This document shows positions 16,810-52,427 of a DNA stretch of 64,000 nt, piece after piece. Source of the DNA: Lycium barbarum. Taxonomy: Eukaryota; Streptophyta; Magnoliopsida; Solanales; Solanaceae. The stretch's first letter is position 1; every line of letters begins with the position of its first letter. The position numbers were made by a program, and so were the translations under genes. The notes beneath the pieces are model-generated. The model had not been told where the DNA came from. It ran no database searches and saw only the letters and a list, made by a program, of their open reading frames with translations. The DNA lies in NCBI RefSeq assembly GCF_019175385.1, contig NC_083338.1, forward strand, positions 63,458,884 through 63,522,883, in the 5' to 3' direction.

Positions 16810-19287
16810 CACCTCCCCTATAAATACGACACCCCGAGAATTCAACTCGGCCAAAATAATTCAACAACAACCCAACAACAACAACAATCACTACAAATCA
16901 CAATATGTCACAACTAGTCTTCTTTCCAACATAATGCAATAGCTTTCATTCCGACTTCACATTTTAAAATCAATACCAACATGCTCATATTCATTACTAA
17001 TCAAGATCATTACAATATGATTCGGAAGCATTTCATATCATTTCTACAATATATTCACAAGATATACAAAATATACAAACTTTCCACCAAAGGCATAATT
17101 CATCCAAAACTTCTAATCTTTAACATACTAATTCATAACATGTTTCCATCTTCTAATTTCATCAACAATCGTCACAATTGCACCTTAACAACCTCAATTA
17201 CATAATTTATAATAGAATCACATACTTTCCGAAAACAACTCAACAACAAATTTTTCATGCTACTTGAACTAGAACTCTTCCATTTGCATCACAAGGTCAC
17301 AACAACACAACTAACATACCAAATAAAATCAACTCATCTCCCCTTCACCATATAGCACCCCACGGCCTCAACACACACGGCTTGCACACCACACACAACA
17401 CTTCTATAATTTTCATTAAATTCTAATCATCATAACAATATAAGTTTTCCATAAAAAGAATGCAATTCTTACCTTCCTCCAATTTCTTCACTTGGCTAAA
17501 ACTTCCAACTTGCAAGAATATGAATTTTTATTGTTCCAATGAGAACTCCAACTTGCTAAGGACCATTAAATTGGTAGAAAATGATTTTTGAAGGGATATG
17601 TTTTCCTTGGTCTTGAGCTTGGCCGAAAATGGCCTAGAGCTTTCTCCTTTTTTTTTTCCAAGTCTTGAAATGTCTAGAATGTTATGTGGACAATTAGAAG
17701 ACTTGGTCTTCTTTTAATATTGTTCATTAACCTTTTATGTGGGCTTAAGCCCACACCAATTTGGATGGCCAACTTGGCCCAAACTCAAATCCACCCATTT
17801 CTTTTTTTTTCAATTCATGAACAAAATTATTTTTCCAATTTCCAAATTTGCCCTTCGTCTTCCCCCATATTTTTGCGTCCATAATTCGTACAAACATCTT
17901 GTGTACTAATCAAGGTTGAAGTGTATGTGTTAAATCCGACATTTTTGCATATTCGAAAAATTCGAGATAACTTGACTTGTAATGAATGAGGTCATATTTG
18001 GACCTTACTTGGTATGAATGTGTCGGCTATGAATACCTTGGTGTGGAATTACGAAAGGAGGCCAAGGGAAAAATTGAAATTTTGAAAATTAGTTTCGGAA
18101 ATTACAAAATAAGAATTTTTGATGAATTGAGCTCAAAAAAAAATAATAAAATGAGGCCCAACAAAGGGAGCCCAACCGGCCACACTTCATGGCCCAAGTC
18201 CATGGAATATTATTCCATGTGACAAATTAATAAAAAGGGATAAGTATATACATGGATCAATGTTCACCTTTTGGAACATTCAAGAAAAACCAAGAAGAGA
18301 GAAAAAGAAGAAGAGGTCACGACCTAAGAGAAAGAGAAAGAGAAAAAGAAAAGAAAAATTCTTGGAGCGCAAATCCTTGATTCAAAAATCCATCTCTTTT
18401 GGAATTATTACTAAGTTCAAGATTCTCTACAAAGTGGTACAATTATTTTGGCAAGAAACTATCTTTGGTAGCAAGGAGAATTTGTTGGGAAAAAGGTAAG
18501 AATCTTATGTTCTTTTCATGTTGTGACGCCTTGTTTATGTTGTGGAGTGTAGGAATGAGTAGCAACTATGGAAATATGGAAGTTTGTATGGCATTGGTAT
18601 GTATGCATATGTAGCCGTGTGGGAGGTTTTGACCGTGTGTGTGTGTGTGTTGTATATTTATGATGAGTCGAATTTATGTTATAATCTAGTTGTGGTGATG
18701 ATGGAATTTGTATTGGAAATGAAAGTTGGAAATTTTAGTGCATGGCCGTGTGGATGTATAAATATGTGTGTGTGGCCGTGTAGTGCTATATGTTGGAGAG
18801 AACATAGATTTGTTATAATTAGTATGTTAATTGTGTGGTAATCTTGTGATGAAAATGAGAAAAAGTGTTGTTAATTGGTTGTCGGAAAGTAGATGATTTT
18901 AGTATAGTTTATGTGATTATGGGAATGAAATTGTAAGAATATGCTATGGATGTTTATGCTAAAGATTGGAGGTTGCGGGTGAAATATGCCCTTAGTAGGA
19001 AACTTGTATATTGCGTATATCTTATGTATATTTGGTGAAAACGATATGATATGCCTCCGATTCATGTTGTAATGATCTTGATGAGTGATGAATATGAAAA
19101 TGGTAAGATTGGGTTGGAAGTGTAAGGTCGGAATGAAAGATATTGTGCTATGTCGGAAAGATGGCTAGTAATGTCATATTATGTGTTTTGTGATTCTTGT
19201 TGTTGTTATTGATGTTGTTGTTGGGTTGCTGTGTTGATATATTAAGCTGAGCTAAGTCTCGGGGATGTTATATATATAGGGGAAATG

Positions 19288-19305
19288 CTGCCGAAATTTC
19301 GGTAG
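19288..19305 (+). promoter_or_regulatory. core-promoter palindrome, beta 5' LTR
   Basis: CTGCCGAAATTTCGGTAG lies immediately after TTATATATATAGGGGAAATG. A consensus-like 5' splice site AG|GTATGT lies about 120 bp downstream (GT at 19427). Confidence 0.65.
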
Positions 19306-20620
19306 GCAAGTATGCAATGAAATTTCGAATCTTAAAGACTCGAATTTGACAATTGGTAAACATGACCATTTGTAGATTCTGGACGAAATTGGGATTAAAG
19401 CTAAGCGAGCATAAGGCGCAACTGAGGTATGTAAAGCCTACCCCTTCATTCTTAGGCATGTTCTGAACATAATAGGCTCGGCCGCGAGCCTTAAATACGA
19501 CTCCGTTCCTCAGAATTCGAGATGGAAATCCGCTCCAATTCCTTCAGTAAGATTGAATCCATTTCCTTATAACTTGTCTTCAAAGTGAACCTTAAGTATG
19601 CAACCTTCCTAAACGGAGTCGGCATACTTCCAAATCATTATGGACGACCTCATAAGGTCTACTATCTGTAATTTACGTACGCCTCCTCGGGTTGGTCCGA
19701 GGGGGGCCCACAAGGCCCGATACTTTCTTTATAACTTTAACTACTTTGTTTCTGTCCGCCTTTCTCAGACAACATGTGGATTAACATTCTAATCATGATA
19801 TGACGATATTTTTATATAAATCTTACAAAATGATTTTGACATCTGAAAGTCTTACTCTGGTAATAATCTGTCGTGCCTTCCCAAGTAGGATATAGGCGCG
19901 TATTATGAACACTATCTGATTACTCTAATTTGACTCGCCGTTTGGCATACTTCAGTCTGATTGAGTCTGTATGATGATCTGTATGTATGTGGTTTCTCAT
20001 TAATCTGTTCGTGGATGCCTCAACGCTTCCTTCACTGCGCCCGGGCCAGGTTCTGTTATCGTGCATACTCCTCTGCATTGTTCACCGCGTCACTCGGTGT
20101 GCGCGCCGGGATCTGTTTATATCTGTAAGATATTATGATTTGTGTATGGGGATGGCGGCCAGGATGGCATATGATCTGATTCTGTCTGTCCACCGTGTCC
20201 CGTACTAAGAGGGCCGGGATCTGTATGTATGTATGTATGTATATGCTATCTGTATCTGTATAAGCATATGACTCTGTATGACTCTGTATGACTCTGCATG
20301 CATGATTCTGTCCGTCCGTTTGGATCATACTTCTGTCTATCCGTATGAATTATGATTCTGTCTGTTCGCCTGGACTATGATTCTATCCGTCCGTCTGGAC
20401 TATGATTCTGTCTGTCCGTCTGGGTTGTGATTATGTCCGGTACATTTCTGTCTGTCCGTTCGGATTATGATTCTGTCCGGTATTCTTCCGCCTGTTTGTC
20501 TGAATTACGACTCTGTCCGGTATACCTCTGTCTGTTCGTTGGATTATGATTCCGTTGGCTATACTTCCGTGCTTCTGATTCAGACTATGATTATGTTTGT
20601 TATATTTCTGCTTTACATAC

Positions 20621-20678
20621 TCGGTACATTTTTCGTACTGACTCCCGGTTCTTCGGGGGCTGCGTTACATGCCCGCAG
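20621..20678 (+). promoter_or_regulatory. three-hairpin LTR module, copy 4 (beta 5')
   Basis: The stems are TCGGTAC/GTACTGA (one wobble), a shortened C/G stem around loop GGTTCTTC, and CTGCG/CGCAG. Confidence 0.7.
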
Positions 20679-21149
20679 GTACAGACGCACCCGGTGATAC
20701 GCCGCCAGTCTAGGGCACAGATTCTGCTATTTTGGAGAGCTCCTTTGATCCGGAGCGTGTTCTTTTGGTATATATATCTTCTGACATCTTTATATTTTGT
20801 ACGTATGGTAACTCTGGGTACGGCGGGGCCCTGTCCCGTCATATGACTCTGTATGTCTGTTAGAGGCCTGTAGATATGTATGTGGGTTACGAGTTACATC
20901 TGTTCAGGTAGGTGCGTACGATTTTGCGACTCTGTTTGTTATGTTAGCCTCATCGGCTTATGCAAAAGTTTCAGTATGCATATATATATATATATATATA
21001 TTTTCGCGCGCGTCGTATCTGTATTGGCTTGAATCTGTAAACACCTATTTGAAATGTTCTGTCTGGTACGCCGATTCTGTCAGGTAGGTACGTATGGGTA
21101 TCCAGTTAGGATACTAGTCGCAGCCCACGGGGTTGGGTCGTGACAGAAG

Positions 21150-21161
21150 TGGTATCAGAGC
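21150..21161 (+). promoter_or_regulatory. primer-binding site of beta
   Basis: TGGTATCAGAGC lies four bases after the LTR and is complementary to the 3' end of a methionyl-type tRNA. Confidence 0.9.
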
Positions 21162-21169
21162 GGTTTGTC

Positions 21170-21262: not shown

Positions 21263-21429
21263 TGTTACCCTTCTTTGGATATTAGATCGTGCGATAAAGC
21301 TGTATGGTTAGGATGTTGCTTCCCTACGAATTGTTGTATCTACAGCGGGGCTCCAAAAGAGCATCAGTGTCAGTATTTGGGGAAAATATTTCTGACCCTC
21401 TTCCTGCAGGTGATTGTAGATTGACAAGA

Positions 21430-21954: not shown

Positions 21955-22282
21955 ACCCGAGATTGATCATTACGAGTACATAAGTTTCCTAGAATTTCCG
22001 ATGTGTGTATGATATCTGTACAATAGTATTCGATGACGACGACAGAAAGTTTAAAAGGATTAAAGACCTAGTGGTTAAAAGCAAGGGTGACTGAGATGTC
22101 TCCACTATTAGTGTGAATCTAGAAACCCCAGATGAAGGTGAATATTGAAGATTCAGAAAGACAACATGGTAATTGTATGGTATAGCCCGGGGTGGGACCC
22201 ACTACGAGAATTTTTCAAAAATTTACTAAGATCCCGATCTGCCCTAAATTACGTGGCAAAGGTCGTGCGGGGCAGTCAACGA

Positions 22283-22379
22283 AATTACACTAGCCTTAAC
22301 GCGTCAGAACGCGTGAAAGTTTCGAGGTTAAGCGTGCTAAGGCTAGAGCAATTCTGGGATGGGTGACCCCCTGGGAAGT
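22283..22379 (+). promoter_or_regulatory. 5S rRNA-derived segment in the beta internal domain
   Basis: This 97-nt stretch aligns without gaps to plant 5S rRNA as I recall it, at roughly 70 percent identity by eye, covering about 5S positions 7-102. The strongest part is 22327-22379. It holds GTTAAGCGTGCT (box A position) and GGATGGGTGACC then CTGGGAAGT (box C position) at the exact 5S spacing of 53 nt. A TTTT run at 22389-22392 lies where an RNA polymerase III terminator would be expected. The segment is in sense orientation relative to the element. Whether it is transcribed is unknown. Confidence 0.8.
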
Positions 22380-22648
22380 ATGCAAGAATTTTATATATTC
22401 CGATATAAGAGACGAATGGAAAGTTAAGATAGCCCGAGTGGGGTTAGAATATGCGAGATGGTTGAAGATCATAAAAGGCCACACAGCACGCGATCAGATA
22501 GATTAGAGAAGTAACAGAAAGAACGCTACGACTTGGGAATTAGAATAGGTTTGAACGATGTTTGGGGATAATGTGTGGCCTAGTTGAAAATAAATATGTA
22601 TGCACATATGAATGTGTATGATGCTTTATCTGTGATCGTACTAGTGAA

Positions 22649-22674
22649 TACGTGTGTCCCCGCGACCGGTGCTA
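22649..22674 (+). other. conserved internal block of beta, shared with LARD
   Basis: TACGTGTGTCCC-n-GCGACCGGTGCTA differs by one base from the LARD internal domains, where it also lies about 360 bp after the 5S-derived segment. Confidence 0.6.
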
Positions 22675-24275: not shown

Positions 24276-24289
24276 AAAGGGGGGGAGGA
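24276..24289 (+). promoter_or_regulatory. polypurine tract of beta
   Basis: AAAGGGGGGGAGGA directly abuts the 3' LTR and would prime plus-strand DNA synthesis. Confidence 0.85.
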
Positions 24290-25643
24290 TGTTACATCCG
24301 ACATTTTTGCATATTCGAAAAATTCGAGATAACTTGACTTGTAATGAATGAGGCCATATTTGGACCTTACTTGGTATGAATGTGTCGGCTATGAATACCT
24401 TGGTATGGAATTACGAAAGGAGGCCAAGGGCAAAATTGGAATTTTGGAAATTAGTTTCGGAAATTACAAAATAAGAATTTTTGATGAATTGGGCTCAAAA
24501 AAAAAAATGAGGCCCAACAAAAGGAGCCCAACCGGCCACACTTCATGGCCCAAGTCCATGGAATATTATTCCATGTGACAAATTAATAAAAAGGGATAAG
24601 TATATACATGGATCAATGTTCACCTTTTGGAACATTCAAGAAAAACCAAGAAGAGAGAAAAAGAAGAAGAGGTCACGACCTAAGAGAAAGAGAAAGAGAA
24701 AAAGAAAAGAAAAATTCTTGGAGCACAAATCCTTGATTCAAAAATCCATCTCTTTTGGAATTATTACTAAGTTCAAGATTCTCTACAAAGTGGTACAATT
24801 ATTTTGGCAAGAAACTATCTTTTGTAGCAAGGAGAATTTGTTGGGAAAAAGGTAAGAATATTATGTTCTTTTCATGTTGTGACGCCTTGTTTATGTTGTG
24901 GAGTGTAGGAATGGGTAGCAACTATGGAAATATGGAAGTTTGTATGGTATTGGTATGTATGCATATGTAGCCGTGTGGGAGGTTTTGACCGTGTGTGTGT
25001 GTGTGTTGTATACTCTTGATGAGTCGAATTTATGTTATAATCTAGTTGTGGTGATGATGGAATTTGTATTGGAAATGAAAGTTGGAAATTTTAGTGCATG
25101 GCCGTGTGGATGTATAAATATGTGTGTGTGGCCGTGTAGTGCTATATGTTGGAGAGAACATAGATTTGTTATAATTAGTATGTTAATTGTGTGGTAATCT
25201 TGTGATGAAAATGAGAAAAAGTGTTGTTAATTGGTTGTCGGAAAGTAGATGATTTTAGTATAGTTTATGTGATTATGGGAATGAAATTGTAAGAATATGC
25301 TATGGATGTTTATGCTAAAGATTGGAGATTGCGGGTGAAATATGCCCTTAGTAGAAAACTTGTATATTGCGTATATCTTATGTATATTTGGTGAAAACGA
25401 TATGATATGCCTCCGATTCATGTTGTAATGATCTTGATGAGTGATGAATATGAAAATGGTAAGATTGGGTTGGAAGTGTAAGGTCGGAATGAAAGATATT
25501 GTGCTATGTCGGAAAGATGGCTAGTAATGTCATATTATGTGTTTTGTGATTCTTGTTGTTGTTATTGATGTTGTTGTTGGGTTGCTGTGTTGATATATTA
25601 AGCCGAGCTAAGTCTCGGTGATGTTATATATATAGGGGAAATG

Positions 25644-25661
25644 CTGCCGAACTTTCGGTAG
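25644..25661 (+). promoter_or_regulatory. core-promoter palindrome, beta 3' LTR
   Basis: CTGCCGAACTTTCGGTAG has one mismatch relative to the 5' LTR copy and sits after TATATATAGGGG. Confidence 0.6.
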
Positions 25662-26984
25662 GCAAGTATGCAATGAAATTTGGAATCTTAAAGGCTCGAA
25701 TTTGACAATTGGTAAACATGACCATTTGTAGATTCTGGACGAAATTGGGATTGAAGATAAGCGAGCATAAGGCGCAACTGAGGTATGTAAAGCCTACCCC
25801 TTCATTCTTAGGCATGTTCTGAACATAATAGGCTCGGCCGCGAGCCTTAAATACGACTCCGTTCCTCTGAATTCGAGATGGAAATCCGCTCCAATTCCTT
25901 CAGTAAGATTGAATCCATTTCCTTATAACTTGTCTTCAAAGTGAACCTTAAGTATGCAACCTTCCTAAACGGAGTCGGAATACTTCCAAATCATTATGGA
26001 CGACCTCATAAGGTCTACTATCTGTAATTTACGTACGCCTCCTCGGGTTGGTCCGAGGGGGGCCCACAAGGCCCGATACTTTCTGTATAACTTTAACTAC
26101 TTTGTTTCTGTCCGCCTTTCTCAAACAACATCTGGATTAACATTCTAATCATGATATGATGATATTTTTCTATAAATCTTACAAAATGATTTTGACATCT
26201 GAAAGTCTTACTCTGGTAATAATCTGTCGTGCCTTCCCAAGTAGGATATAGGCGCGTATTATGAACACTATCCGATTACTCTGATTTGACTCGCCGTTTG
26301 GCATACTTCAGTCTGATTGAGTCTGTATGATGATCTGTATGTATGTGGATTCTCATTAATCTGTTCGTGGATGCCTCAACGCTTCCTTCACTGCGCCCGG
26401 GCCAGGTTCTGTTATCGTGCATACTCCTCTGCATTGTTCACCGCGTCCCTCGGTGTGCGGGCCGGGATCTGTTTATATCTGTATGATATTATGATTTGTG
26501 TATAGGGATGGCGGCCAGGATGGCAAATGATCTGATTCTATCTGTCCACCGTGTCCCGTACTAAGAGGGCCGGGTTCTGTTACCGCGTCCCTCATGAGAG
26601 GGCCGGGATCTGTATGTATGTATGTATGTATATGCTATCTGTATATGTATAAGCATATGACTCTGTATGACTCTGTATGACTCTGCATGCATGATTCTGT
26701 CCGTCCGTTTGGATCATGATTCTGTCTGTTCGCCTGGACTATAATTCTATCCGTCCGTCTGGACTATGATTCTGTCTGTCCGTCTGGGTTGTGATTATGT
26801 CCGGTACATTTCTGTCTGTCCGTTCGGATTATGATTTTGTCCGGTATTCTTCCGCCTGTCTGTCTGAATTACGACTCTGTCCGGTATACCTATGTCTGTT
26901 CGTTGGATTATGATTCCGTTGGCTATACTTCCGTGCTTCTGATTCAGACTATGATTATGTTTGTTATATTTCCGCTTTACATAC

Positions 26985-27042
26985 TCGGTACATTTTTCGT
27001 ACTGACCCCCGGTTCTTCGGGGGCTGCGTTACATGCCCGCAG
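26985..27042 (+). promoter_or_regulatory. three-hairpin LTR module, copy 5 (beta 3')
   Basis: The stems are TCGGTAC/GTACTGA, CCCCC/GGGGG with loop GGTTCTTC, and CTGCG/CGCAG. Confidence 0.7.
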
Positions 27043-27506
27043 GTACAGACGCACCCGGTGATACGCCGCCAGTCTAGGGCACAGATTCTGCTATTTTGGA
27101 GAGCTCCTTTGATCCGGAGCGTGTTCTTTTGGTATATATATCTTCTGACATCTGTATATTCTGTACGTACGGTAACTCTGGGTATGGCGGGGCCCTGTCT
27201 CGTCATATGACTCTGTATGTCTGTTAGAGGCCTGTAGATATGTATGTGGGTTACGGGTTACATCTGTTCAGGTAGGTGCATACGATTTTGCGACTCTGTC
27301 TGTTATGTTAGCCTCATCAGCTTATGCAAAAGTTTCAGTATGCATATATAAATATATTTTCGCGCGCGCCGTATCTGTATTGGCTTGAATCTGTAAACAC
27401 CTATTTGAAATGTTCTGTCTGGTACGCCGATTCTGTCTGGTAGGTACGTATGGGTATCCAGTTAGGATACCATTCGCGGCCCACGGGGTTGGGTCGTGAC
27501 AGTATG

Positions 27507-36765: not shown

Positions 36766-38715
36766 ACCAACCATTAATATACATCATAACTCAGCTGATC
36801 CCATCCATTTAATTCAACTAAAACAACCCCCGATCCATAAATCTCAACAAAGCAACAAACGAGTTTATAATGCTATTTTCTCCGTTCTAATCCATTAAAA
36901 CCCTAATTAAACTTATTAACAATGAAAAAGGGACCTTAATCTTACCTTAAGTATGCAGCAACCACGTCAACACTCCTCGTTTTGGCTGATTTTTAGCTCA
37001 AACGGAAGGCAACGCGACGCACAACACTTTTCTCTTCATGAGCTTCGGGATTCAGGACTCTGATTTTGATCAAAATGGCTCTCTTAGCCTAGAAGCTCTC
37101 TCCCTCTCTCTCTAATATTCTTGGACGCTCCTAGTTGCAAATGACCAGCCCTCAAATGAATTTTCCATATATATTAACGTTAATGGGCCTCATGGGCCGA
37201 AATGTAATTGCTTGGGTCGGGTCTCAACTTGCTGCCCCGCCAGCCCAACTTGCATCGTCCATATCTCCATATCCCGTTATCATTTTGTCGAGCGGTTGTT
37301 GCGTTGGAAACTAGACTCGATGAACTCCATTTTAGGTGTTATGTCCCGTATTTTGCACATTCGAAAAATTTGAAATAATTGTGACTCGTAAGAGATAAGG
37401 CCATATTTTGATTTTTATTTAACATGTAAGTTGTTCATGAGAAATATTGATGCGAAAAATATCGAGGGAGGCTAAGGGCAAAATTGGAATTTTGAAAATT
37501 TGTTTCATGAAATTACAAATGTTAGCCAACTAATTGGGCTCAAAAAACAAAAAAGAGAAAGTGAGGCCCAAACATAGGGGTGTGGCCGGCCATGGTGTAA
37601 ATGGCCCAATCCCATGTGGCAATTAAATTCATGAATAAATAAGACAAGGGACCATTTGTTCATTCTAGATTTTTCAAGAAAACACAAAAAAAATTGAGAG
37701 CAACAACAAGGGGGCCATTCGGCCAACCCCCTAGAAAATCAAGTCATGGAAATGTTGTTCCAAAAATTTGTTTCTTCATGTATTTCCACTAATTTGAAGG
37801 TCCTCTTTAACGTGGTGTAGTCGTTGAAGCAAGAATCTCCCTCTTTGTTGCAAGTTGACAAGTCTAGTTAAGTGAGGAAGTTGAAGGAAAAGATAAGAAT
37901 TCATTCCTTTTATATGTTATGAATGGTTGGGTATGTTGTGGCATGTGGGCAAGAATGAAATTCATAAGAAATATGGGTGTATGTTGTAGTCGTGCATGGT
38001 GTGTGTGTAGCCGTGCATAGTGTGTGTATGTGTGGCCGTGTATGTGTTGTTGTATGTAAGGGATGATGAACTAATTTTACGTAGTGTGTTGGTTGTTGTT
38101 GTAATGCATGGAAAAGGATGAGAATTCATGAAAATATGTGGTGTGTGTGTGTGGCCGAATATAGTGGCTTTGTGTAAGAAAGATGAAATAATTTTATTTA
38201 GTAGTTTGATTGTTGTGTTGTGGATCTCGTGGTGTAAAACGAATATTTAATGGCATGAAATGAAGTTGTAGTCGTTGAAGTATTGTTATGGAAGGTAATG
38301 CGACGCTAACATAAATTCTTATAATCGTATGAATGAAATCGTTAATGTAGATTGTTGATGGAATTAATGAATTTGGAGAAGAAAGAATGTCTTGTTGTGA
38401 TTCTTATGGAGTTGGAAGATCCCGGGTGTGTGTGTTGGTTATGGCCGAATGGAGGCTATGTTGGTAAGATGTAGTGAATTGATTTTACTTAGTATTTTGA
38501 GAGTTGTTGTGGTTGATTGGAATGTAAATGAAATGCCGTTGAATCGTGTGAAACGAGTTATTAATGTTAGAATACGTTTTGAATAAATTGTTGAAGTTAG
38601 AAGAATAAATTGTTGGTATTTTTGTTGATATTGTGGCCGAGTTAAATTATCGGATTTGTTGTTGTGTTTTTGGCCGAGTTGAATTCTCGGGGATTGGGCA
38701 TTTACAGGGGAAATG

Positions 38716-38733
38716 CTGCCGAAATTTCTGTAG
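38716..38733 (+). promoter_or_regulatory. core-promoter palindrome, LARD LTR1
   Basis: CTGCCGAAATTTCTGTAG (one mismatch) follows TTACAGGGGAAATG. AG|GTATGT lies about 120 bp downstream (GT at 38855). Confidence 0.55.
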
Positions 38734-40059
38734 ACAAATGTTAATTCAATATGCAATTTCTAAAGGCTTCTAATTAATGTTTGGTAAATGTGACCATTTG
38801 TAGATTTTGGAGAGTTTGGAACTTGAATTTGGAGTAGCGTAAGAAGCGGAAAAGGTATGTAAAGCTTTATCATTCTTTCTTTGGCATGTCCTAGATATAA
38901 TAGGTTATGACATGAGCCTCGGGGATGATTCTACTCCTAGAAATCCGAGCTTAGATTTGGCCCTTTTTCATTCAATGGAATTGAATTAGAAACTCTATGT
39001 TTTGTTGGGAAATAACATAACCATTTATAACTTCCACAAATGGGACCGAATTACCCTAAGAATTTCATAAGTGACCCCGTAAATCTTAATGTACGTAATT
39101 TGTGTCCGCTACCTCGGCTGACCCGAGGTGGGCCCACTATTTCCGAATCCGCCCCTATTGTATTATTGACATGTTTTCGAGCAATAAGTAAAGAAAACTT
39201 TTAGCTACTCCCTCAACTATTAAACGATAGTTGTTTTAACTGTTCCATTGATTTCTATGATATATTTTGATATGTACAAACGATCTCAAACAAAAGCTTT
39301 GCTATGACATAATCCGTCGGAGCATCCGAAAGGTATTTAATATGATAATACGTCCGGTTGTCTTATCGAACCTTTGATATGTTTGATATGTGTATAAGAT
39401 TCCAAGTTATATTTGATTTGATTCATAATGATATCCCAAAAAGGATTTTGACATGATGATGGCTTCTGGAATGCTTATTGGACGGTCTATACTTCAAAGG
39501 TTCGTAACTTTTGCAAACTAATCCCGATTGACCCGAAACTTATTTCTGAGCCTTCGGGTAACGATAAGTGTGTTTTTATATAAGTATGTCTTTTGTACCA
39601 CTCTTTTGGACTTACTTTCGCACGATATTCAAAGGGATCTTTTGATCATTGTTCCGCTTACCATACGATAAGTGTTGTAAATATTCCAATGAGTCTTATA
39701 ATGTATTTAAATATGTAAAACGATTCTAACGGCCTTATTCTGATACCATCCTTCGTGCCATCCAAAAGGTATCTATATATATACATTATGACTATCATCC
39801 GATTCCTTCGAACTAATCTGTCGTTTGGATTTGCTTTGGAATGTCCGTAAAAGTTCTGTGGTAAAAATGTCCGTAACTTTCACATATTAACTCCGATCGA
39901 ATCGGAACATGTTTATGATCTTCGAATGTCGGTAAGTGTCCGTATCTGTTGAGTCTAGATATGTGTGCATATGGTTTCTCACTGCTCTGTTTGTGCAAAC
40001 CTCAGTATGTTATTCACTGCGCCCGGGCCAGGTTCTGTTATGTTATCGTGCCTCTTCCT

Positions 40060-40460
40060 TTGCATTGTTCACCGCGTCCGTCTCCCCTGCGGGTCGGGTT
40101 CTGTTATATGTATGTTTATGATGATACGGGGCGGTGGCCAGGATGGCATATGATATGTGATTCACCGTGTCCCGCAGCAGAGGGCCGGGTTCTGTTACAT
40201 GCATATATGACATATGACTTACCGCGTCCCTTAGTAAAGGGCCGGGATCTGTTATCTGCATACATGTTATATGATTCTGACATGCATCGATAATTCTGTT
40301 CACCGCATCCCTTCCTAAAGGGCCGGGATCTGTTACTTGCATATAAGATATCTGACTTTGGCATCTGATGATTCTGTCCACCGTGTCCCTTACTAAGGGC
40401 CGGGATCTGCTATCTGATTCTGTTCACCGCGTCCCTCACGAAAGGGTCGGGATCTGTTCT
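40060..40460 (+). repeat. hairpin array in LARD LTR1
   Basis: Repeated units read CACCGCGTCCCTT-n-AAGGGCCGGGATCTG with spacers of about 25-55 bp. Each can form a CCCTT/AAGGG stem. LTR3 has the same array (about 51540-51925); LTR2 has lost most of it. Confidence 0.75.
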
Positions 40461-40898
40461 ATGCATATATACGATATACGATTCTGATCTGTTTGATTTG
40501 TGTTTGGAAAGCAAGCGTTTTGGCATTCTGTACCTTCTGCATTTCTTCTGACATACGATATCGGGATACACGATCTGTGTCTGGAAAACAACCGCTCTGA
40601 CATTCGGGATCCGTACATCTCCTGACTTATGACTTCGGCATATATGCTCTGCATTTGGAAATAAACCTTCTGGTACCCTTGATCTGTACCTTTTTCTGGC
40701 ATATGACCTGCGTTTGGGAAATAAGTATTTCGGTATTCTGTATGATTTGCTTACTTCTGTACTCCTTCTGACATGTGACATAGGTATGTATGATCTGCGT
40801 CCAGAAAATAAGCTTTGGTACTTTGGGTAGAGTATTTACTGTTTGTACTGTCTATTTCGATTATAGATCAGTTTTTCAGTATTCCATGCTTTACATAC

Positions 40899-40956
40899 TC
40901 AGTACATATTCCGTACTGACCCCTCTTCTTCGGGGGCTGAGTTTCATGCCATGCAG
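40899..40956 (+). promoter_or_regulatory. three-hairpin LTR module, copy 9 (LARD LTR1)
   Basis: Stem 1 is perfect and stem 2 is CCCC/GGGG. Stem 3 is damaged (CTGAG versus TGCAG), unlike in LTR2 and LTR3. Confidence 0.65.
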
Positions 40957-41360
40957 GTACACCCAGATGATGTGCAGTTTTATAGAAGATGTTCCAGCAG
41001 AGATGGCAAGCTCCAGTTGTTCCCGGAGGGTTGCCGAGTCAGAGTTTGTATGTTCTGATTTCTGGATGTATGTTAGAGACTTTGCAGACAGCGTCGTGGG
41101 TAATGATTGTCAGTCTGTAAGCGGCTCCATCAGCCGATATGTCATTCTGTGTTATGTAATAAATTTTATATAATTACAGATTTTGTTTAATTTTGAGAAC
41201 TATAAAAGAAAGATTTCGAAAGCTTAATATGTGCTTTACTTTTATCTGATCTTCAGAGTCCGAAGAAATTACGTGTATAATAAGAATCTGTGGGTTCGCT
41301 CGGCTCCGGATATGGGGTCGGGTGCCCATCACACCCTAGGGATATTAGGGTGTGACAAAG

Positions 41361-41373
41361 TGGTATCAGAGCC
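41361..41373 (+). promoter_or_regulatory. primer-binding site, LARD internal 1
   Basis: TGGTATCAGAGCC lies three bases after LTR1. Confidence 0.9.
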
Positions 41374-41379
41374 GGTCTG

Positions 41380-41480
41380 TCCTAGGGATTGTCTGCAAAG
41401 TCGTGTCCAGTAGAGTCCTTTTTATGGTGTGAAGCACGCCACATTTATAAACAGGAGGCTACGGGGCATCTAGGGATTGT
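41380..41480 (+). promoter_or_regulatory. post-primer leader block, LARD internal 1
   Basis: It shares GTCCAGTAGAGTCCTT, GGTGTGAAGCACGCCACAT, AAACAGGAGGCTAC and GGGCATCTAGGG with beta, alpha and D. Confidence 0.6.
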
Positions 41481-41565
41481 TGACCTTGTTTCTGTCATAG
41501 ATCGTGTGATAGAGCGAAGCCATAGGAAATAAGATTCTTTACGTAAGCTTTACATACGGCGAAAA

Positions 41566-41628
41566 ATGGCAAGTGGTGACATGGGAGGTCGTAAAGGTAA
41601 GTCTGGATATATTTGTCCTGTGACCTGA
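41566..41628 (+). other. short ORF with splice-donor consensus, LARD internal 1
   Basis: This 20-codon frame (M-A-S-G-D-M-G-G-R-K-G-K-S-G-Y) holds AAAG|GTAAGT at 41593-41602, a perfect plant 5' splice site. It sits where gag begins in alpha, whose gag also starts with a basic K-G-K-S stretch. It may be a relic of a gag N-terminus. Function is not established. Confidence 0.35.
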
Positions 41629-42009
41629 AACAGAAAGTTGTGGATGGTTGTAATGTGGTATATAATTGTATGTTATGTGAGATATTGTTGATATTTGGCA
41701 TGTGTAGATTCTGAATAGCAGGAATGGTAAAGGAGATTGTTATGTAATAATAGTGAGTAAAAGCCCGGATGGTCCGATACTCGAAGTATTAGTAAGTAAC
41801 GGCGATGAAGGTATGTTCGCCACCATCGGGAATCTGGAAGCCCAGAACAAGCAATAATCATATACATAAGTGAAGAGTGAATATAGGGAATCAAAAAGGG
41901 TAAAATAGTAATTGTACGAAGGAGGACGTGTCTCGAGAATGTCTTAGGATCTGTAAGACCTCGACTAGCCCCAAATCATGTAGTGAAAGTCATACGGAAA
42001 AGCGGACAT

Positions 42010-42098
42010 GATTATATCGGCATGAAGGCGCCGAATTCCGTCAACGTTTCGGTGTTAAGCGTGCTAAGGTGGGAGGATGGGTGACCCCCCTGGGAAGT
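42010..42098 (+). promoter_or_regulatory. 5S rRNA-derived segment, LARD internal 1
   Basis: 42010-42065 aligns without gaps to plant 5S rRNA, at about 70 percent by eye, ending in the identical GTTAAGCGTGCT. After a deletion of about 9 nt relative to 5S, GGATGGGTGACC and CTGGGAAGT follow. The altered box A to box C spacing and the lack of a nearby T-run make transcription by polymerase III less likely than in beta. Confidence 0.75.
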
Positions 42099-42370
42099 AT
42101 GCAAGATACTCTAAAGATTTAGCCGTCAGAGACAAATGAAAAGATAGAGTAACCTAAAGGGAAATTAGCGTATATGGAATGGTTAGAGACCCTAAACGGC
42201 CATATAGCACGCGACAGGTTCGACTAGAGGGGAGACGGAAAGTACGTCACGGCTTTGGAACTTAGATAGGCTTGAATAGCGTTTGGAAGTATTTTGTGGG
42301 CTAGTTAATAATAATTATATGTATATATATATGAATGCATATGATAGGTCCTTGAGATTGTATCAGTGGA

Positions 42371-42396
42371 TACGTGTGTCCCAGCGACCGGTGCTA
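42371..42396 (+). other. conserved GCGACCGGTGCTA block, LARD internal 1
   Basis: The block is shared with beta at the same distance from the 5S-derived segment. Confidence 0.55.
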
Positions 42397-42709
42397 CAAT
42401 ATGGAAGGCACCAACTTGGTAAGGATACCGAAGTTCAAGTAACAGCAAAAAATAAATGGTGCGAGTGTTATAAAATAAGTTGATGTTATTCCCGCTACAA
42501 GTTAAGAATAGAGAAGTCCTAATACAAGGATATTTGAAAAAGAAAGAGTATGAAGATGTGGACAAATGAGGATATAAACATAAAGTGAGAGAAAGACTTA
42601 TGGTAAGAAGTTTTCGATATGTTATGCGTAGAGTTGGAAAGGAAGGTGAGGAATGAAGTATAATCGAAGAGGAGAGTACTCGAAGATTGAGACCTACAAG
42701 GAACCCCTT

Positions 42710-42732
42710 AAAAAGGGGGGGGGGGGGGGAGA
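42710..42732 (+). other. internal A5G15 polypurine run, LARD internal 1
   Basis: AAAAA is followed by fifteen G and then AGAG. It resembles the terminal polypurine tract but lies about 570 bp upstream of it. Internal 2 has the equivalent run at 48240-48271 with twenty consecutive G. Confidence 0.6.
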
Positions 42733-43260
42733 GCATATAATGTCAGACTCAAAAAGGGAATCGCGACAATTGGTAGTTTGGGAATTTTTGGAAGAAGGAA
42801 AGAACGCAGCGCCTGTGGATGAAATAAGAGAAGCCACCGGATATTAGAAAATAGTTCACGGACCATTAATTGTATGGAATATGAGAATATATGTTATGAA
42901 ATTATATGAATCATCGACGTGAAGCGACGCTCGGTCATATTTGTAATGATTCTACACCGGAGAGTCAACAAGGAATAACGATGGACGAAACGAGCGTCAA
43001 CACAAGAAATCAAAGACAAGTATACTTTGTCGGGAAATATGACAGAAGGAAATAAAGAAAAGCCGTAGTGAGAATTCAAAGATGTTGCGAACTAACAAGT
43101 TGAGTAAACTCGAATCACGAGTTCCCATAGGGGTAACTGGATCGTGAAGGATAATAAGCGATAAAGACACATTGTGTACATACATTTTTAGGTAAGTATT
43201 TGGAATGAAAGATTAAAGAGGGACCCTCCCGGAGTATTATAACACCCCATGAGGTCAGTT

Positions 43261-43297
43261 GAACATTCAAGGACGAATGTTCTAAAGGGGGAGAGGA
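43261..43297 (+). promoter_or_regulatory. pre-polypurine hairpin and polypurine tract, LARD internal 1
   Basis: GAACATTC-AAGGAC-GAATGTTC (43261-43282) is followed by AAAGGGGGAGAGGA (43284-43297), which abuts LTR2. Confidence 0.85.
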
Positions 43298-44674
43298 TGT
43301 TATGTCCCGTATTTTGCACATTCGAAGAATTTGAAATAATTGTGACTCGTAAGAGATAAGGCCATATTTTGATTTTTATTTAACATGTAAGTTGTTCATG
43401 AGAAATATTGATGCGAAAAATATCGAGGGAGGCTAAGGGCAAAATTGGAATTTTGAAAATTGGTTTCATGAAATTACAAATGTTAGCCAACTAATTGGGC
43501 TCAAAAAAAAAAGAGAAAGTGAGGCCCAAACATAGGGGTGTGGCCGGCCATGGTGTAAATGGCCCAAGCCCATGTGGAAATTAAATACATGAACAAATAA
43601 GACAAGGGACCATTTGTTCATTCTAGATTTTTCAAGAAAACACAAAGAAATTTGAGAGCAAGAACAAGGGGGCCATTCGGCCAACCCCCTAGAAAATCAA
43701 GTCATGGAAATGTTGTTCCAAAAATTTGTTTCTTCATGTATTTCCACTAATTTGAAGGTCCTCTTTAACGTGGTGTAGTTGTTGAAGCAAGAATCTCCCT
43801 CTTTGTTGCAAGTTGACAAGTCTAGTTAAGTGAGGAAGTTGAAGGAAAAGATAAGAATTCATTCCTTTTATATGTTATGAATGGTTGGGTATGTTGTGGC
43901 ATGTGGGCAAGAATGAAATTCATAAGAAATATGGGTGTATGTTGTAGTCGTGCATGGTGTGTGTGTAGCCGTGCATAGTGTGTGTATGTGTGGCCGTGTA
44001 TGTGTTGTTGTATGTAAGGGATGATGAACTAATTTTACGTAGTGTGTTGGTTGTTGTTGTAATGCATGGAAAAGGATGAGAATTCATGAAAATATGTGGT
44101 GTGTGTGTGTGGCCGAATATAGTGGCTTTGTGTAAGAAAGATGAAATAATTTTATTTAGTAGTTTGATTGTTGTGTTGTGGATCTCGTGGTGTAAAATGA
44201 ATATTTAATGGCATGAAATGAAGTTGTAGTCGTTGAAGTATTGTTATGGAAGGTAATGCGACGCTAACATAAATTCTTATAATCGTATGAATGAAATCGT
44301 TAATGTAGATTGTTGATGGAATTCATGAATTTGGAGAAGAAAAGAATGTGTTGTTGTGATTCTTATGGAATTGGAAGATCCCGGGTGTGTGTGTTGGTTA
44401 TGGCCGAATGGAGGCTATGTTGGTAAGATGTAGTGAATTGATTTTGCTTAGTATTTTGAGAGTTGTTGAGGTTGATTGGAATGTAAATGAAATGCCGTTG
44501 AATCGTGTGAAACGAGTTATTAATGTTAGAATACGTTTTGAATAAATTGTTGAAGTTAGAAGAATAAATTATTGGTATTGTTGTTGATATTGTGGCCGAG
44601 TTAAATTCTCGGATTTGTTGTTGTATTTTTGGCCGAGTTGAATTCTTGGGGATGGCACATTTATAGGGGAAATG

Positions 44675-44692
44675 CTGCCGAAATTTCTGTTG
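44675..44692 (+). promoter_or_regulatory. core-promoter palindrome, LARD LTR2
   Basis: CTGCCGAAATTTCTGTTG lies after TTTATAGGGGAAATG. The downstream splice-like site is altered to GTATAT (44815). Confidence 0.5.
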
Positions 44693-46180
44693 ACAAATGT
44701 TAATTCAAGATGCAATTTCTAAAGGCTTCTAATTAATGTTTGGTAAATGTGACCATTTGTAGATTTTGGAGAGTTCGGAACTTGAATTTGAAGTAGCGTA
44801 AGAAGCGGAAAAGGTATATAAAGCTTTACCATTCTTTCTTTGGCATGTCCTAGATATAATAGGTTATGACATGAGCCTCGGGGATGATTCTACTCCTAGA
44901 AATCCGAGCTTAGATTTGGCCCTTTTTCATTCAATGTAATTGAATTAGAAACTCTATGTTTTGTTGGGAAATAACATAACCATTTATAACTTCCACAAAC
45001 GGGACCGAATTACCCTAAGAATTTCATAAGTGACCACGTAAAGCTTAATGTAGGTAATTTGTGTCCGCCACCTCGGCTGACCCGAGGTGGGCCCACTATT
45101 TCCGAATCCACCCCTATTGTATTATTGACTTGTTTTCGAGCAATAAGTAAAGGAAACTTTTAGCTACTCCCTCAACTATTAAACGATAGTTGTTTTAACT
45201 GTTCCATTGAGTTCTATGATATATTGTGATATGTACAAACGATCTCAAACAAAAGCTTTGCTATGACATAATCCGTCGGAGCATCCGAAAGGTATTTAAT
45301 ATGATAATACGTCCGGTTGTCTTATCGAACCTTTAATATGTTTGATATGTGTATAAGATTCCAAGTTCTATTTGATTTGATTCATAATGATATCCCAAAA
45401 AGGATTTTTACATGATGATGGCTTCTGGAATGCTTATTGGACGTTCTGTACTTCAAAGGTTCGTAACTTTTGCATACTAATCCCAATTGACCCGAAACAT
45501 ATTTCTGAGCCTTCGGGTGACGATAAGTGTGTTTGTATATAAGTATGCCTTTTGTACCACTCTTTTGGACTTAATTTCGCACGGTATTCAAAGGGAGCTT
45601 TTGATCATTGTTCCGCTTACCATACGATAAGTGTTGTAACTATTCCAATGAGTCTTATAATGTATTTAAATATGTAAAACGATTCTAAAGGCCTTATTCT
45701 GATACCATCCTTCGTGCCATCCAAAAGGTATATATATATATACATTATGACTATCGTCCGATTCCTTCGAACTAATCTGTCGTTTGGATTTGCTTTGGAA
45801 TGTCCGTAAAAGTTCTGTGGTAAAAATGTCCGTAACTTTAACATATTAACTCCGATCGATTCGGAACATGTTTATGATCTTCGAATGTCAGTAAGTGTCC
45901 GTATCTGTCGAGTCTGGATATGTGTGCATATGGTTTCGCACTGCTCTGTTCGTGCAAACCTCAGTATGTTATTCACTACGCCCGGGCCAGGTTCTTTTAT
46001 GTTATTGTGCCTCTTCCTCTGCATTGTTCACCGCGTCCCTCTCCCATGCGGGCCGGGTTCTGTTATATGAATGTTTATGATGATACGGGGCGGTTGCCAG
46101 GATGGCATATGATATGTGATTCGCCGTGTCCCGCAGCAGAGGGTCGGGTTCTGTTACATGCATATATGACATATGTATGT

Positions 46181-46430
46181 ATGATCTGCGTCCGGAAAAT
46201 AAGCTTTGGTACTTTGGGTAGAGTATTTACTGTTTGTACTGTCTGTTTCGATTATAGATCAGTTTTTTTGTATTCCATGCTTTACATCCTTCTGACATGT
46301 GACATAGGTATGTATGATCTGCGTCCGGAAAATAAGCTTTGGTACTTTGGGTAGAGTATTTACTGTTTGTACTGTCTGTTTCGATTATAGATCAGTTTTT
46401 TTGTATTCCATGCTTTACATACTCAGTACA
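46181..46430 (+). repeat. 133-bp tandem duplication in LARD LTR2
   Basis: The unit starting ATGATCTGCGTCCGG occurs at 46181 and again at 46314. The second copy continues into the three-hairpin module. It is absent from LTR1 and LTR3. Confidence 0.85.
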
Positions 46431-46480
46431 TATTCCGTACTGACCCCTGTTCTTTGGGGGCTGCGTTTCATGCCACGCAG
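46423..46480 (+). promoter_or_regulatory. three-hairpin LTR module, copy 10 (LARD LTR2)
   Basis: The stems are TCAGTAC/GTACTGA, CCCC/GGGG and CTGCG/CGCAG. Confidence 0.7.
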
Positions 46481-46884
46481 GTACACCCAGAGGATGTGCA
46501 GTTTTATAGAAGATGTTCCAGCGGAGATGGCAAGCTCTACTTCCTCCCGGAGTGTTGCTGAGTCAGAGTTTGTATGTTCTGATTTCTGGATGTATGTTAG
46601 AGACTTTGCAGACAGCGTCGTGGGTATTGATTGTCAATCTGTAAGCGGCTCCATCAGCCGATATATCATTCTGTGTTATGTAATAAATTTTATATAATTA
46701 CAGATTTTGTTTAATTTTGAGAACAATAAAAGAATGATTTCGAAAGCTTAATATGTGCTTTACTTTTATCTGATCTTCAGAGTCCGAAGAAATTACCTGT
46801 ATAATAAGAATCTGTGGGTTCGCTCGGCTCCGGATACGGGGTCGGGTGCCCATCACACCCTAGGGATATTAGGGTGTGACAAAG

Positions 46885-46897
46885 TGGTATCAGAGCC
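46885..46897 (+). promoter_or_regulatory. primer-binding site, LARD internal 2
   Basis: TGGTATCAGAGCC lies three bases after LTR2. Confidence 0.9.
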
Positions 46898-47577
46898 GGT
46901 CTGTCCTAGGGATTGTCTGCAAAGTCGTGTCCAGTAGAGTCCTTTTTATGGTGTGAAGCGCGCCACATGTATAAACAGGAGGCTATGGGGCATCTAGGGA
47001 TTGTTGACCTTCTTTCTGTCATAGATCGTGCGATAGAGCCAAGCCATAGGAAATAAGATTCCTTACGTAAGCTTTACATACGGCGAAAAATGGCAAGTGG
47101 TGACATGGGAGGTCGTAAAGGTAAGTCTGGATATATTTGTCCTGTTACCTGAAATAGAAAGTTGTGGATGGTTGGAATGTGGTATATAATTGTATGTTAT
47201 GTGAGATATTGTTGATATTTGGCATGTGTAGATTCTGAATAGCAGGAATGGTAAAGGAGATTGTTATGTAAGAATAGTGAGTAAAAGCCCGGACGGGCCG
47301 ATACTCGAAGTATTCGTAAGTAACGGCGATGAAGGTATGTTCGCCACCATCGGGAATCTGGAAGCCCAGAACAGGCAATAATCATATACATAAGTGAAGA
47401 GTGAATATAGGGAATCAAAAAGGGTAAAATAGTAACTGTACGAAAGAGGACGTGTCACGAGAATGTCTCAGGATCTGTAAGACCTCGACTAGCCCCAAAT
47501 CATGTAGTAAAAGTCATACGAAGAAGCGGACATGATTATATCGGCATTAAGGCGCCGAATTCCGTCAACGTTTCGGT

Positions 47578-47622
47578 GTTATGCGTGCTAAGGTTCGAGG
47601 ATGGGTGACCCCCCTGGGAAGT
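47578..47622 (+). promoter_or_regulatory. 5S rRNA-derived segment (core), LARD internal 2
   Basis: GTTATGCGTGCT (one change in the box A position), a shortened spacer, then GGATGGGTGACC and CTGGGAAGT. It extends upstream as in internal 1, from about 47534. Confidence 0.7.
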
Positions 47623-48799
47623 ATGCAAGATACTCTAAAGATTTAGCCGTCAGAGACAAATGAAAAGATAGAGTAACCTAAAGGGAAATTAGCGTATATG
47701 GAATGGTTAGAGACCCTAAACGGCCATATAGCACGCGACAGGTTAGACTAGAGGGGAGACGGAAAGTACGTCACGACTTTGGAACTTAGATAGGCTTGAA
47801 TAGCGTTTGGAAGTATTTTGTGGGCTAGTTAATAATAATTATATGTATATATATATATATATGAATGCATATGATATCTCCTTGAGATTGTATCAGTGGA
47901 TACGTGTGTCCCAGCGACCGGTGCTACGATATGGAAGGCACCAACTGAGTAAGGATACCGAAGTTCAGGTAATAGCAAAAAATAAATGGTGCGAGTGTTA
48001 TAAAATAAGTTGATGTTATTCCCGCAACAAGTTAAGAATAGAGAAGTCTTAATACAAGGATATTTGAAAAAGAAAGAGTATGAAGATGTGGACAAATGAG
48101 GATATAGACATAAAGTGAGAGAAAGGCTTATGGTAAGAAGTTTTCGATATGTTATGCGTAGAGTTGGAAAGGAAGGTGAGGAATGAAGTATAATCAAAGA
48201 CGAGAGTACTCGAAGATTGCGACATACAAGGAACCCCTTAAAAAGGGCGGGGGGGGGGGGGGGGGGGGAAAGCATATAATGTCAGACTCAAAAAGGAAAT
48301 CGCGACAATTGGTAGTTTGGGAATTTTTGGAAGAAGGAAAGAACGCAGCGCCTGTGGATGAAATAAGAGAAGCCACCGGATATTAGAAAATAGTTCACGG
48401 ACCATTAATTGTATGGAATATGAGAATATATGTTATGAAATTATATGAATCATCGACGTGAAGCGACGCTCGGTCATATTTGTAATGATTCTACACCGGA
48501 GAGTCAACAAGGAATAACGATGGACGAAACGAGCGTCAACACAAGAAATCAAAGACAAGTATACTTTGTCGGGAAATATGACAGAAGGAAATAAAGAAAA
48601 GCCGTAGTGAGAATTCAAAGATGTTGCGAACTAACAAGTTGAGTAAACTCGAATCACGAGTTCCCATAGGGGTAACTGGATCGTGAAGGATAATAAGCGA
48701 TAAAGACACATTGTGTACATACATTTTTAGGTAAGTATTTGGAATGAAAGATTAAAGAGGGACCCACCCGGAGTATTATAACACCCCATGAGGTCAGTT

Positions 48800-48836
48800 G
48801 AACATTCAAGGACGAATGTTCTAAAGGGGGGGAGGA
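48800..48836 (+). promoter_or_regulatory. pre-polypurine hairpin and polypurine tract, LARD internal 2
   Basis: GAACATTC-AAGGAC-GAATGTTC (48800-48821) is followed by AAAGGGGGGGAGGA, which abuts LTR3. Confidence 0.85.
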
Positions 48837-50209: not shown

Positions 50210-50227
50210 CTGCCGAAATTTCTGTAG
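50210..50227 (+). promoter_or_regulatory. core-promoter palindrome, LARD LTR3
   Basis: CTGCCGAAATTTCTGTAG follows TTACAGGGGAAATG. AG|GTATGT lies downstream (GT at 50349). Confidence 0.55.
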
Positions 50228-52369: not shown

Positions 52370-52427
52370 TCAGTACATATTCCGTACTGACCCCTCTTCT
52401 TCGGGGGCTGCGTTTCATGCCACGCAG
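52370..52427 (+). promoter_or_regulatory. three-hairpin LTR module, copy 11 (LARD LTR3)
   Basis: The stems are TCAGTAC/GTACTGA, CCCC/GGGG and CTGCG/CGCAG. Confidence 0.7.

What the first reader, a model, noticed from the sequence alone, without database searches (positions are those of the whole stretch)
22283..22392. 5S rRNA-derived segment with box A/box C spacing and a T-run inside a non-coding LTR element
Seen: a 97-nt gapless match to plant 5S rRNA (as I recall it), about 70 percent by eye overall and much higher over the last 53 nt. GTTAAGCGTGCT and GGATGGGTGACC lie at 5S spacing, with TTTT ten bases downstream. Known: Cassandra TRIM elements carry 5S sequence in their LTRs. Here it lies in the internal domain of a 9.6-kb element, about 1.1 kb after the primer site. 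Inference: it may drive an internal polymerase III transcript or fold like 5S in the packaged RNA. I know of no description of this arrangement.
Basis: partly seen in the sequence, partly recalled or inferred. Interest (0 to 1): 0.9.

Follow-up and report, generated by a model that had tools for sequence, protein, structure and literature searches.

The report
5S gene promoter inside retrotransposon body
A piece of a plant's 5S ribosomal RNA gene, cut off just after its promoter, sits in the body (not the ends) of many defective retrotransposons, and its two promoter boxes have mostly been kept while the DNA around them drifted, so it probably does a job for the element.

Summary
Window 22277-22379 matches 5S rDNA nt 1-103 (73/103 identical to a host 5S copy; 46/53 over nt 51-103), in the internal domain of a 9.6-kb LTR element without pol (TSD GTATG, PBS, PPT). 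Homology stops at nt 103-105 in 93 of 93 hits, so the 3' strands of helices I and V are absent. Two more blocks lie in the window (42006-42100, 47530-47624); the genome holds 4,729 exact A-box/C-box pairs, reversed control 0 (context read for about 100). All 40 scored hits of a flank query without the block carry it. On a tree of 89 copies, lineage changes in A-box core and C box are about 10-fold rarer than in 5S nt 1-50 or the flanks, terminal changes much less so. L109 has gag upstream; L095 a pol-end relic. Most likely: a DNA-level 5S internal control region (TFIIIA site) captured by a chromovirus-derived non-autonomous clade. Against a short Pol III RNA or a 5S mimic: TTTT is not shared between families, one family lacks 9 nt between the boxes, no RNA-fold signal. 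One family alone shows no box effect. New variant of a known kind (Cassandra-like capture, other location).

The parts
22277..22379 (+). 5S rDNA-derived block, 5S nt 1-103, in the internal domain of element F1
22327..22338 (+). A-box core GTTAAGCGTGCT (5S nt 51-62), under lineage-level constraint
22343..22348 (+). position of the intermediate element (5S nt 67-72), partly kept (5 of 6 letters of the host copy here)
22356..22379 (+). C box and 3' extension (5S nt 80-103), strongest constraint in the stretch examined
22389..22392 (+). TTTT run; present in 28 of 28 F1 copies (27 at the same distance, one 1 nt nearer), not at this place in F2 or F3
17923..17927 (.). target site duplication GTATG, left
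17928..21145 (+). 5' LTR of element F1 (98.0% identical to the 3' LTR, 3116/3179)
21150..21161 (+). primer binding site TGGTATCAGAGC (iMet type: recalled)
24276..24289 (+). polypurine tract
24290..27501 (+). 3' LTR of element F1
27502..27506 (.). target site duplication GTATG, right
37337..52828 (+). element F2: three LTRs (37337-41357, 43298-46881, 48837-52828) and two internal domains, TSD TTAGG on both sides
42006..42100 (+). second 5S-derived block, with 9 nt missing between A and C boxes
47530..47624 (+). third 5S-derived block, with the same 9 nt missing

Best explanation
The block is the front part of a 5S rRNA gene (nt 1-103, ending just after the C box), captured by an ancestor of a clade of pol-less LTR elements derived from a chromodomain-bearing Ty3 (Tekay-like) retrotransposon; it lies where pol was lost, between gag and the pol end, and some subfamilies lost gag as well. 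It works most likely at the DNA level as a 5S-type internal control region: the A-box core and the C box form a binding site for TFIIIA (and so perhaps TFIIIC/TFIIIB/Pol III) inside the provirus, which helps the element stay open or transcribed, as in Cassandra but from the body instead of the LTR. Shown: 5S homology and its end at nt 103; internal position in the copies read; thousands of box pairs in the genome; box-specific purifying selection in the pooled copies. Inferred: a single capture, replacement of pol, TFIIIA binding, and any gain from it.
For: Homology to the host 5S ends at nt 103-105 in 93 of 93 hits (89 distinct places): promoter kept, 3' part absent. Identity to host 5S in F1/F2/F3: nt 80-98 0.94/0.99/0.99, nt 10-49 0.56/0.57/0.72, nt 105-119 0.20/0.20/0.16. 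Tree of 89 copies built from flanks: terminal/internal changes 11/2 (A core, 12 sites) and 19/2 (nt 80-103, 24 sites) against 73/65 (5S nt 1-50, 50 sites), 94/111 (upstream, 83), 98/78 (+30..+110, 81), 401/239 (+111..+300, 190) and 400/244 (+301..+440, 137); Fisher p 3.6e-6 to 1.7e-3. The 25 lowest of 582 overlapping 24-nt windows by lineage changes all lie within 22327-22388. A flank query without the block: 40 scored hits of 1039 candidates, 28 with a block hit within 600 nt and 12 read directly, all with the block; boxes against 5S nt 1-50 p 9.4e-4. The 5' strand of helix II drifts while nt 58-62 opposite do not, and no RNA-fold signal is seen. Spacing: of 4,729 exact box pairs 21 are longer and 311 shorter, leaving 4,397 by subtraction at exact 5S spacing; 49 different strings fill the gap in the 92 exact-spacing places among the first 100 listed. 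Gag frame upstream of the block in L109; relic 69% identical to a chromodomain-region protein (E 1.6e-23) near the 3' LTR in F3.
Against: F2 lacks 9 nt between the boxes (31 of 31 copies) and F3 has TTTT between them in 29 of 30: both should hurt a working 5S-type gene, yet both families spread. Upstream 5S promoter letters are not recognisable (by eye). No transcript, ChIP or binding data. F3 alone shows no box effect (p = 1). In the flank sample the boxes do not differ significantly from the downstream flank (p 0.13 and 0.056), and not from the 39 nt downstream (p 0.07). nt 63-79 is not distinguishable from the boxes (p 0.17). Of the 12 F4 copies read, the C-box core GATGGGTGACC is exact in 7 and changed in 5 (three of these lie within 20 kb of each other), and the A core is exact in 10. 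The 5' half of the block also has no indels, so constant spacing is weak evidence. Copies for searches were chosen with block-containing queries; recombination between copies was not tested.
Confidence: 0.55

Rival explanations
1. RNA-level 5S mimic: in the element's genomic RNA the block is bound by 5S-binding proteins (RPL5 or TFIIIA), which helps export or packaging, as the 5S-like intron of TFIIIA pre-mRNA and some viroids bind them.
For: Helix III pairs are kept in F3 (0.98; best slid control 0.74) and F2 (0.84; 0.73), helix IV in all (0.97-0.99; 0.83-0.86), helix II 0.70-0.74 (0.56-0.70); F1 shows two two-sided changes in a small hairpin. RPL5 and TFIIIA binding to such RNAs in plants is described in PMC6164485 (passages).
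Against: 3' strands of helices I and V missing; helix III falls to 0.64 in F1; RNAalifold not better than shuffled columns (22, 72 and 179 of 200 shuffles as good); the F1 two-sided changes sit at CG dinucleotides and may be deamination; the half that carries most of helix III (nt 1-50) is not the constrained one.
Confidence: 0.15
2. The constrained letters serve a different element function (packaging or dimer signal, control of gag or of splicing, small-RNA avoidance or mimicry) and no longer have to do with 5S factors.
For: The block lies in the 5' part of the internal domain where packaging signals are usual (recalled); F2 tolerates altered spacing; ATGCAAGA beyond the 5S end is alike in most representatives; a second conserved patch at 22650-22674 has no 5S relation.
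Against: The constraint falls on the two outer promoter boxes of 5S and leaves nt 1-50 free; nt 104-111 behaves differently from the boxes (p 0.039; not so in the flank sample, p 0.29).
Confidence: 0.17
3. Passive relic: an old 5S insertion carried along, with box conservation from chance, a low mutation rate, or gene conversion with 5S genes.
For: Hitch-hiking is expected for any insert; F3 alone shows no effect; 5 of 12 F4 copies have a changed C-box core.
Against: Terminal changes in the boxes (0.79-0.92 per site) are only mildly below those of nt 1-50 and upstream (1.46, 1.13) while internal ones are about 10-fold lower, so a mutational cold spot does not explain it; conversion would not spare only the boxes.
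Confidence: 0.08
4. A working short Pol III gene that ends at TTTT and makes a 5S-length RNA from F1 copies.
For: F1 has exact box spacing and TTTT just after the block in 28 of 28 copies, at about 5S length.
Against: No terminator at that place in F2 and F3; TTTT inside the block in F3; no 5S-like upstream letters seen.
Confidence: 0.05

Closest known systems
Cassandra TRIM retrotransposons
   Same: Non-autonomous plant LTR elements with 5S-derived A box, intermediate element and C box, variable letters between boxes (PMC10853983: abstract, three sections and passages seen); tandem arrays occur (PMC7215508, passages).
   Different: [quoted passage not shown] here it is internal, in an element of 9.6 kb with 3.2-kb LTRs (F1) and one with 3.6-4.0-kb LTRs (F2), with chromovirus relics in relatives.
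Ajax and Helenus (TRIMp3; PMC10886601, abstract and discussion read)
   Same: Small-RNA gene promoter captured by a non-autonomous LTR element; Ajax has only the promoter part of 5S.
   Different: There the captured part is in the LTR and the elements are 311-1263 bp; Ajax is from nemerteans, Helenus is tRNA-derived.
LARDs (large retrotransposon derivatives; passage in PMC7215508)
   Same: Internal domain without protein-coding capacity, assumed to be mobilised in trans; large LTRs (recalled).
   Different: No 5S-derived segment in LARDs is mentioned in the passages seen.
SINE3 (5S-derived SINEs; named in PMC10886601, otherwise recalled)
   Same: 5S-derived Pol III promoter in a mobile element.
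   Different: Non-LTR elements; here the block is embedded in an LTR element.
Plant 5S rRNA mimic in TFIIIA pre-mRNA (PMC6164485, passages)
   Same: 5S-derived stretch reused outside rDNA.
   Different: Acts as RNA bound by RPL5; here most of the 5S fold is not kept.

Membership tests
Cassandra | 5S-derived sequence located in the LTR | tested here: not met
   Block between PBS and 3' LTR; in 55 of 60 loci L001-L008 and L013-L064 a PBS (up to 2 mismatches) lies 575-1216 nt upstream of the C box; the only three 5S hits of the window are internal, none in an LTR
Cassandra | A box and C box of 5S present | tested here: met
   nt 51-62 0.87-1.00 and nt 80-98 0.94-0.99 identity to host 5S in the three families
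Cassandra | intermediate element present | tested here: inconclusive
   identity 0.80/0.32/0.66 in F1/F2/F3; letters of nt 70-72 kept in 87-90 of 92 listed places
Cassandra | TRIM size (short LTRs, small internal domain) | tested here: not met
   LTRs 3.2 kb (F1) and 3.6-4.0 kb (F2), internal 3.1 and 1.9 kb
Cassandra | Pol III transcription | not testable with these tools
   no RNA data
LARD | large LTRs, non-coding internal domain, PBS and PPT, TSD | tested here: met
   F1; longest sense frame in its internal domain 125 aa
5S rRNA gene | full 119-nt sequence with helices I and V | tested here: not met
   no homology beyond nt 105; helix I and V pairs no better than slid controls
Chromovirus (Tekay-like) derivative | gag and integrase-end/chromodomain homology in relatives | tested here: met
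   Retrotrans_gag and zf-CCHC in L109; 69% relic in L095 of a window protein whose Chromo match is 23.9 bits, just under Pfam's 25.1. No such relic was found in F1 or F2 of the window. The name Tekay is recalled; no tree was built
SINE3 | non-LTR element headed by 5S, own TSD and tail | not tested
   no search for a SINE tail or TSD of the block

The most novel reading that the evidence does not exclude
A clade of LTR retrotransposons carries a working 5S-type internal control region in its body, downstream of gag, so that a proviral copy is at once a Pol II unit (LTR) and a TFIIIA/Pol III-bound unit; the second machinery keeps copies open or makes a second RNA, and this helped pol-less elements to spread to thousands of copies. 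The 9-nt-shortened family suggests that binding, not exact 5S transcription, is what is selected.
Probability: 0.35. Interest if true: 0.85.

Novelty: new variant of a known kind. Interest (0 to 1): 0.66.

Why it matters
It would be a 5S-promoter capture by LTR retrotransposons in a place (internal domain) not described in the papers seen here, in elements far larger than Cassandra and with probable helpers (chromoviruses). Thousands of box pairs give a natural mutagenesis set: letters that replicating lineages cannot lose define what a host factor needs. It also warns annotators: a copy such as L062 passes Rfam's 5S threshold and can be counted as a 5S gene.

Tried and rejected
Coding explanation: a frame ends at the TGA inside the C box and is open 74 codons in 16 of 26 F1 copies examined, but a stop lies 2 codons before the boundary in 29 of 29 F3 copies examined and 4-5 codons before it in L108 and L109. 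Internal changes by phase upstream are uneven (75/38/61 over 45/45/44 sites) but lack the third-position excess expected for that frame; the unevenness is unexplained. Coding rejected.

Constant spacing as proof of promoter function: weakened, because the freely drifting 5' half also lacks indels.

RNA fold: no signal. The first MAFFT with the host 5S held an empty host row because of a bad cut-out; redone with L009.

The RF00001 search of the whole genome did not complete. A viral-contig scan for the C-box pattern found 0. No plant genome other than G000 was searched, so distribution in other species is untested.

Literature: ten searches; no title or abstract start that I saw in their listings describes a 5S stretch in the internal domain of an LTR element. 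Only open-licence PMC papers are held; I read parts of five papers and passages of a sixth (PMC10886601, PMC10853983, PMC7215508, PMC6164485, PMC7076952, PMC9043955).

Full report
1. What is there. The finding lies in a structurally complete LTR element (F1) at 17928-27501: LTRs 17928-21145 and 24290-27501, 98.0% identical (3116 of 3179), 5-bp duplication GTATG on both sides, PBS TGGTATCAGAGC at 21150, PPT before 24290. The longest sense reading frame in its internal domain is 125 aa, and none of seven gag/pol protein pieces matched the internal domains of F1 or F2 at better than E 0.6. The 5S match is at 22277-22379.

2. Is it 5S? Rfam's covariance model gives 27.2 bits over the whole model, E 0.0033 in a 1-kb search, below the curated 38 bits. 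Of 13 loci scanned at E up to 1, six gave a 5S hit; L006, L028 and the five F2 loci did not; L062 passed the curated score with 40.1 bits. The host's own 5S was found with a typed 5S: of 40 scored hits 38 lie on contig C6, mostly in a tandem array of about 390 nt, one on C3 and one, L009, on C11. With L009 as query nhmmer gives the window block 44.6 bits against a best of 10.2 in 30 shuffled windows; L062 has 84 of 103 identical letters. Homology ends at 5S nt 103-105 in 93 of 93 hits (four of these are the same place twice, so 89 distinct places). The 5S origin is settled; the 3' end of the gene is missing.

3. Not one element but a clade. The window holds two further blocks in a three-LTR element (F2, 37337-52828, duplication TTAGG). 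Genome searches gave 40 scored copies each for the F1 block, the F2 block and the L062 block (F3), of 3715, 3156 and 4486 first-look candidates. Exact patterns: C-box core followed by GGGAAGTATG, 1,181 places, reversed control 0; A-box core plus NAGG and C-box core 5-34 nt apart, 4,729 places, control 0. The NAGG letters exclude the host 5S copies read here, which have TGGG there. The element context was read for about 100 copies only. A PBS lies 575-1216 nt upstream of the C box in 55 of 60 loci and 688-907 nt upstream of the block in 27 of 30 F3 loci; it was not found in the 1.2-1.4 kb upstream in L108 and L109.

4. Origin of the elements. A neighbouring element (about 53.3-62.95 kb) has gag, RT and integrase matches and a Chromo match just under Pfam's cut-off (23.9 against 25.1 bits). 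In F3 a stretch 69% identical to its pol-end protein (E 1.6e-23) lies just before the 3' LTR (L095). In L109 a gag frame of 301 aa (open at the locus edge; Retrotrans_gag, zinc knuckle) ends about 230 nt before the block; F1-like non-coding sequence and an F1-like LTR follow in L110, with no pol match better than E 0.1. L108 has a gag/protease-end relic upstream (E 4e-6). I infer that the block sits where pol was lost.

5. Selection. In three family alignments private changes in the boxes are about as common as in the 90 nt upstream, shared ones are rare (boxes 25 private/5 shared, upstream 57/76, Fisher p 7.7e-5; 39 nt downstream 29/17, p 0.07). On a tree of 89 copies (28 F1, 31 F2, 30 F3; L065 dropped as the same place as L062) built from 513 flank columns, internal-branch changes per site are 0.17 (A core) and 0.08 (nt 80-103), against 0.35 (nt 63-79), 0.62 (nt 104-111), 1.30 (nt 1-50), 1.34 (upstream) and 0.96-1.78 (downstream); terminal changes are 0.92 and 0.79 against 1.13-1.46 nearby and up to 2.92 further downstream. 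The 25 lowest of 582 overlapping windows lie in or at the block. By family: F1 p 0.047, F2 p 0.013, F3 p 1. These copies were picked with block-containing queries, so I sampled again with 22460-22680, outside the block: 40 scored hits of 1039 candidates, all with the block (28 have a block hit within 600 nt; 12 read directly, a fourth lineage F4). In the 38 of these with letters in hand, boxes 12 terminal/4 internal against 14/38 for nt 1-50 (p 9.4e-4) and 38/53 upstream (p 0.016); against the downstream flank p 0.13 and 0.056. Of the 12 F4 copies the C-box core is exact in 7, and changed in L096, L097 and L099-L101, the last three from within 20 kb. So the effect is clear against the 5' side and pooled, weaker against the 3' side, and not seen in F3 alone.

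6. DNA or RNA? Identity to host 5S: nt 80-98 0.94/0.99/0.99, nt 10-49 0.56/0.57/0.72, nt 105-119 about 0.2 (F1/F2/F3). Helix I pairs 0.35-0.53 and helix V 0.17-0.59, no better than slid controls; helix II 0.70-0.74, III 0.64/0.84/0.98 and IV 0.97-0.99, above their slid controls, as letters inherited from 5S would give. RNAalifold on 24, 26 and 29 distinct rows is not better than shuffled columns. In helix II nt 58-62 are kept while the partner strand drifts. This fits a DNA-binding site better than an RNA fold.

7. Does it work as a Pol III gene? For: box spacing is that of 5S in 4,397 of 4,729 places by subtraction (21 longer; 311 shorter, of which 95 of the 100 listed are the 9-nt-shorter type); 49 different strings fill the gap in the 92 exact-spacing places among the first 100 listed, and nt 70-72 of the intermediate element are each kept in 87-90 of 92. 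Against: 9 nt missing in F2 (31 of 31), TTTT between the boxes in 29 of 30 F3 copies and 15 of 92 listed places, no terminator shared by the families, no clear 5S-like upstream letters. The free 5' half also lacks indels, so spacing alone proves little. That the first three fingers of TFIIIA bind the internal control region on their own is a Xenopus result, recalled, whose title I saw in the reference list of PMC6164485. I therefore prefer 'TFIIIA-bound internal control region' over 'short Pol III RNA gene'.

8. Known or new. [quoted passage not shown] Ajax and Helenus also have their small-RNA part in the LTR (PMC10886601). LARDs match the build of F1 (PMC7215508 passages). No listing of ten searches showed a 5S stretch in the internal domain of an LTR element; most subscription papers are not held. 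I call it a new variant of a known kind.

Noticed in passing
window 22650-22674: Second conserved non-5S patch (about GTGTCCCNGCGACCGGTGCTA) shared by one copy each of F1, F2 and F3, 92-96% identical in pairs; function unknown.
   Followed up: no
window 37337-52828: Three-LTR, two-internal-domain tandem element with one TSD (TTAGG) around all of it; regular spacings of the block elsewhere (about 4.4 kb, five in a row at C1:47245103-47262866) suggest more tandem arrays.
   Followed up: partly
window 21577-21954: 125-aa acidic open frame in the F1 internal domain upstream of the block; not checked for homologs.
   Followed up: no
L109 1-906: Gag-bearing relative without pol between the block and the 3' LTR-like sequence; such gag-only elements may be an intermediate stage.
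   Followed up: partly
window 838-901 and nine further places: A 64-nt motif (GCTTTACATACTCAGTACAT...) is kept in ten places of the window, several in LTRs of different families.
   Followed up: no
L062 1045-1161: Element-borne block passes Rfam's 5S gathering score (40.1 against 38), so automatic annotation may count such copies as 5S genes.
   Followed up: no
G000 C2, C3, C6, C10, C11: A G-run expansion just after the A box (GCTCAGGGGGGGAGCAATTTC and longer) recurs in most of the 21 places with longer spacing.
   Followed up: no
window 22190-22326 and homologs: Internal changes are uneven by phase of three (75/38/61) although no reading frame is kept.
   Followed up: partly
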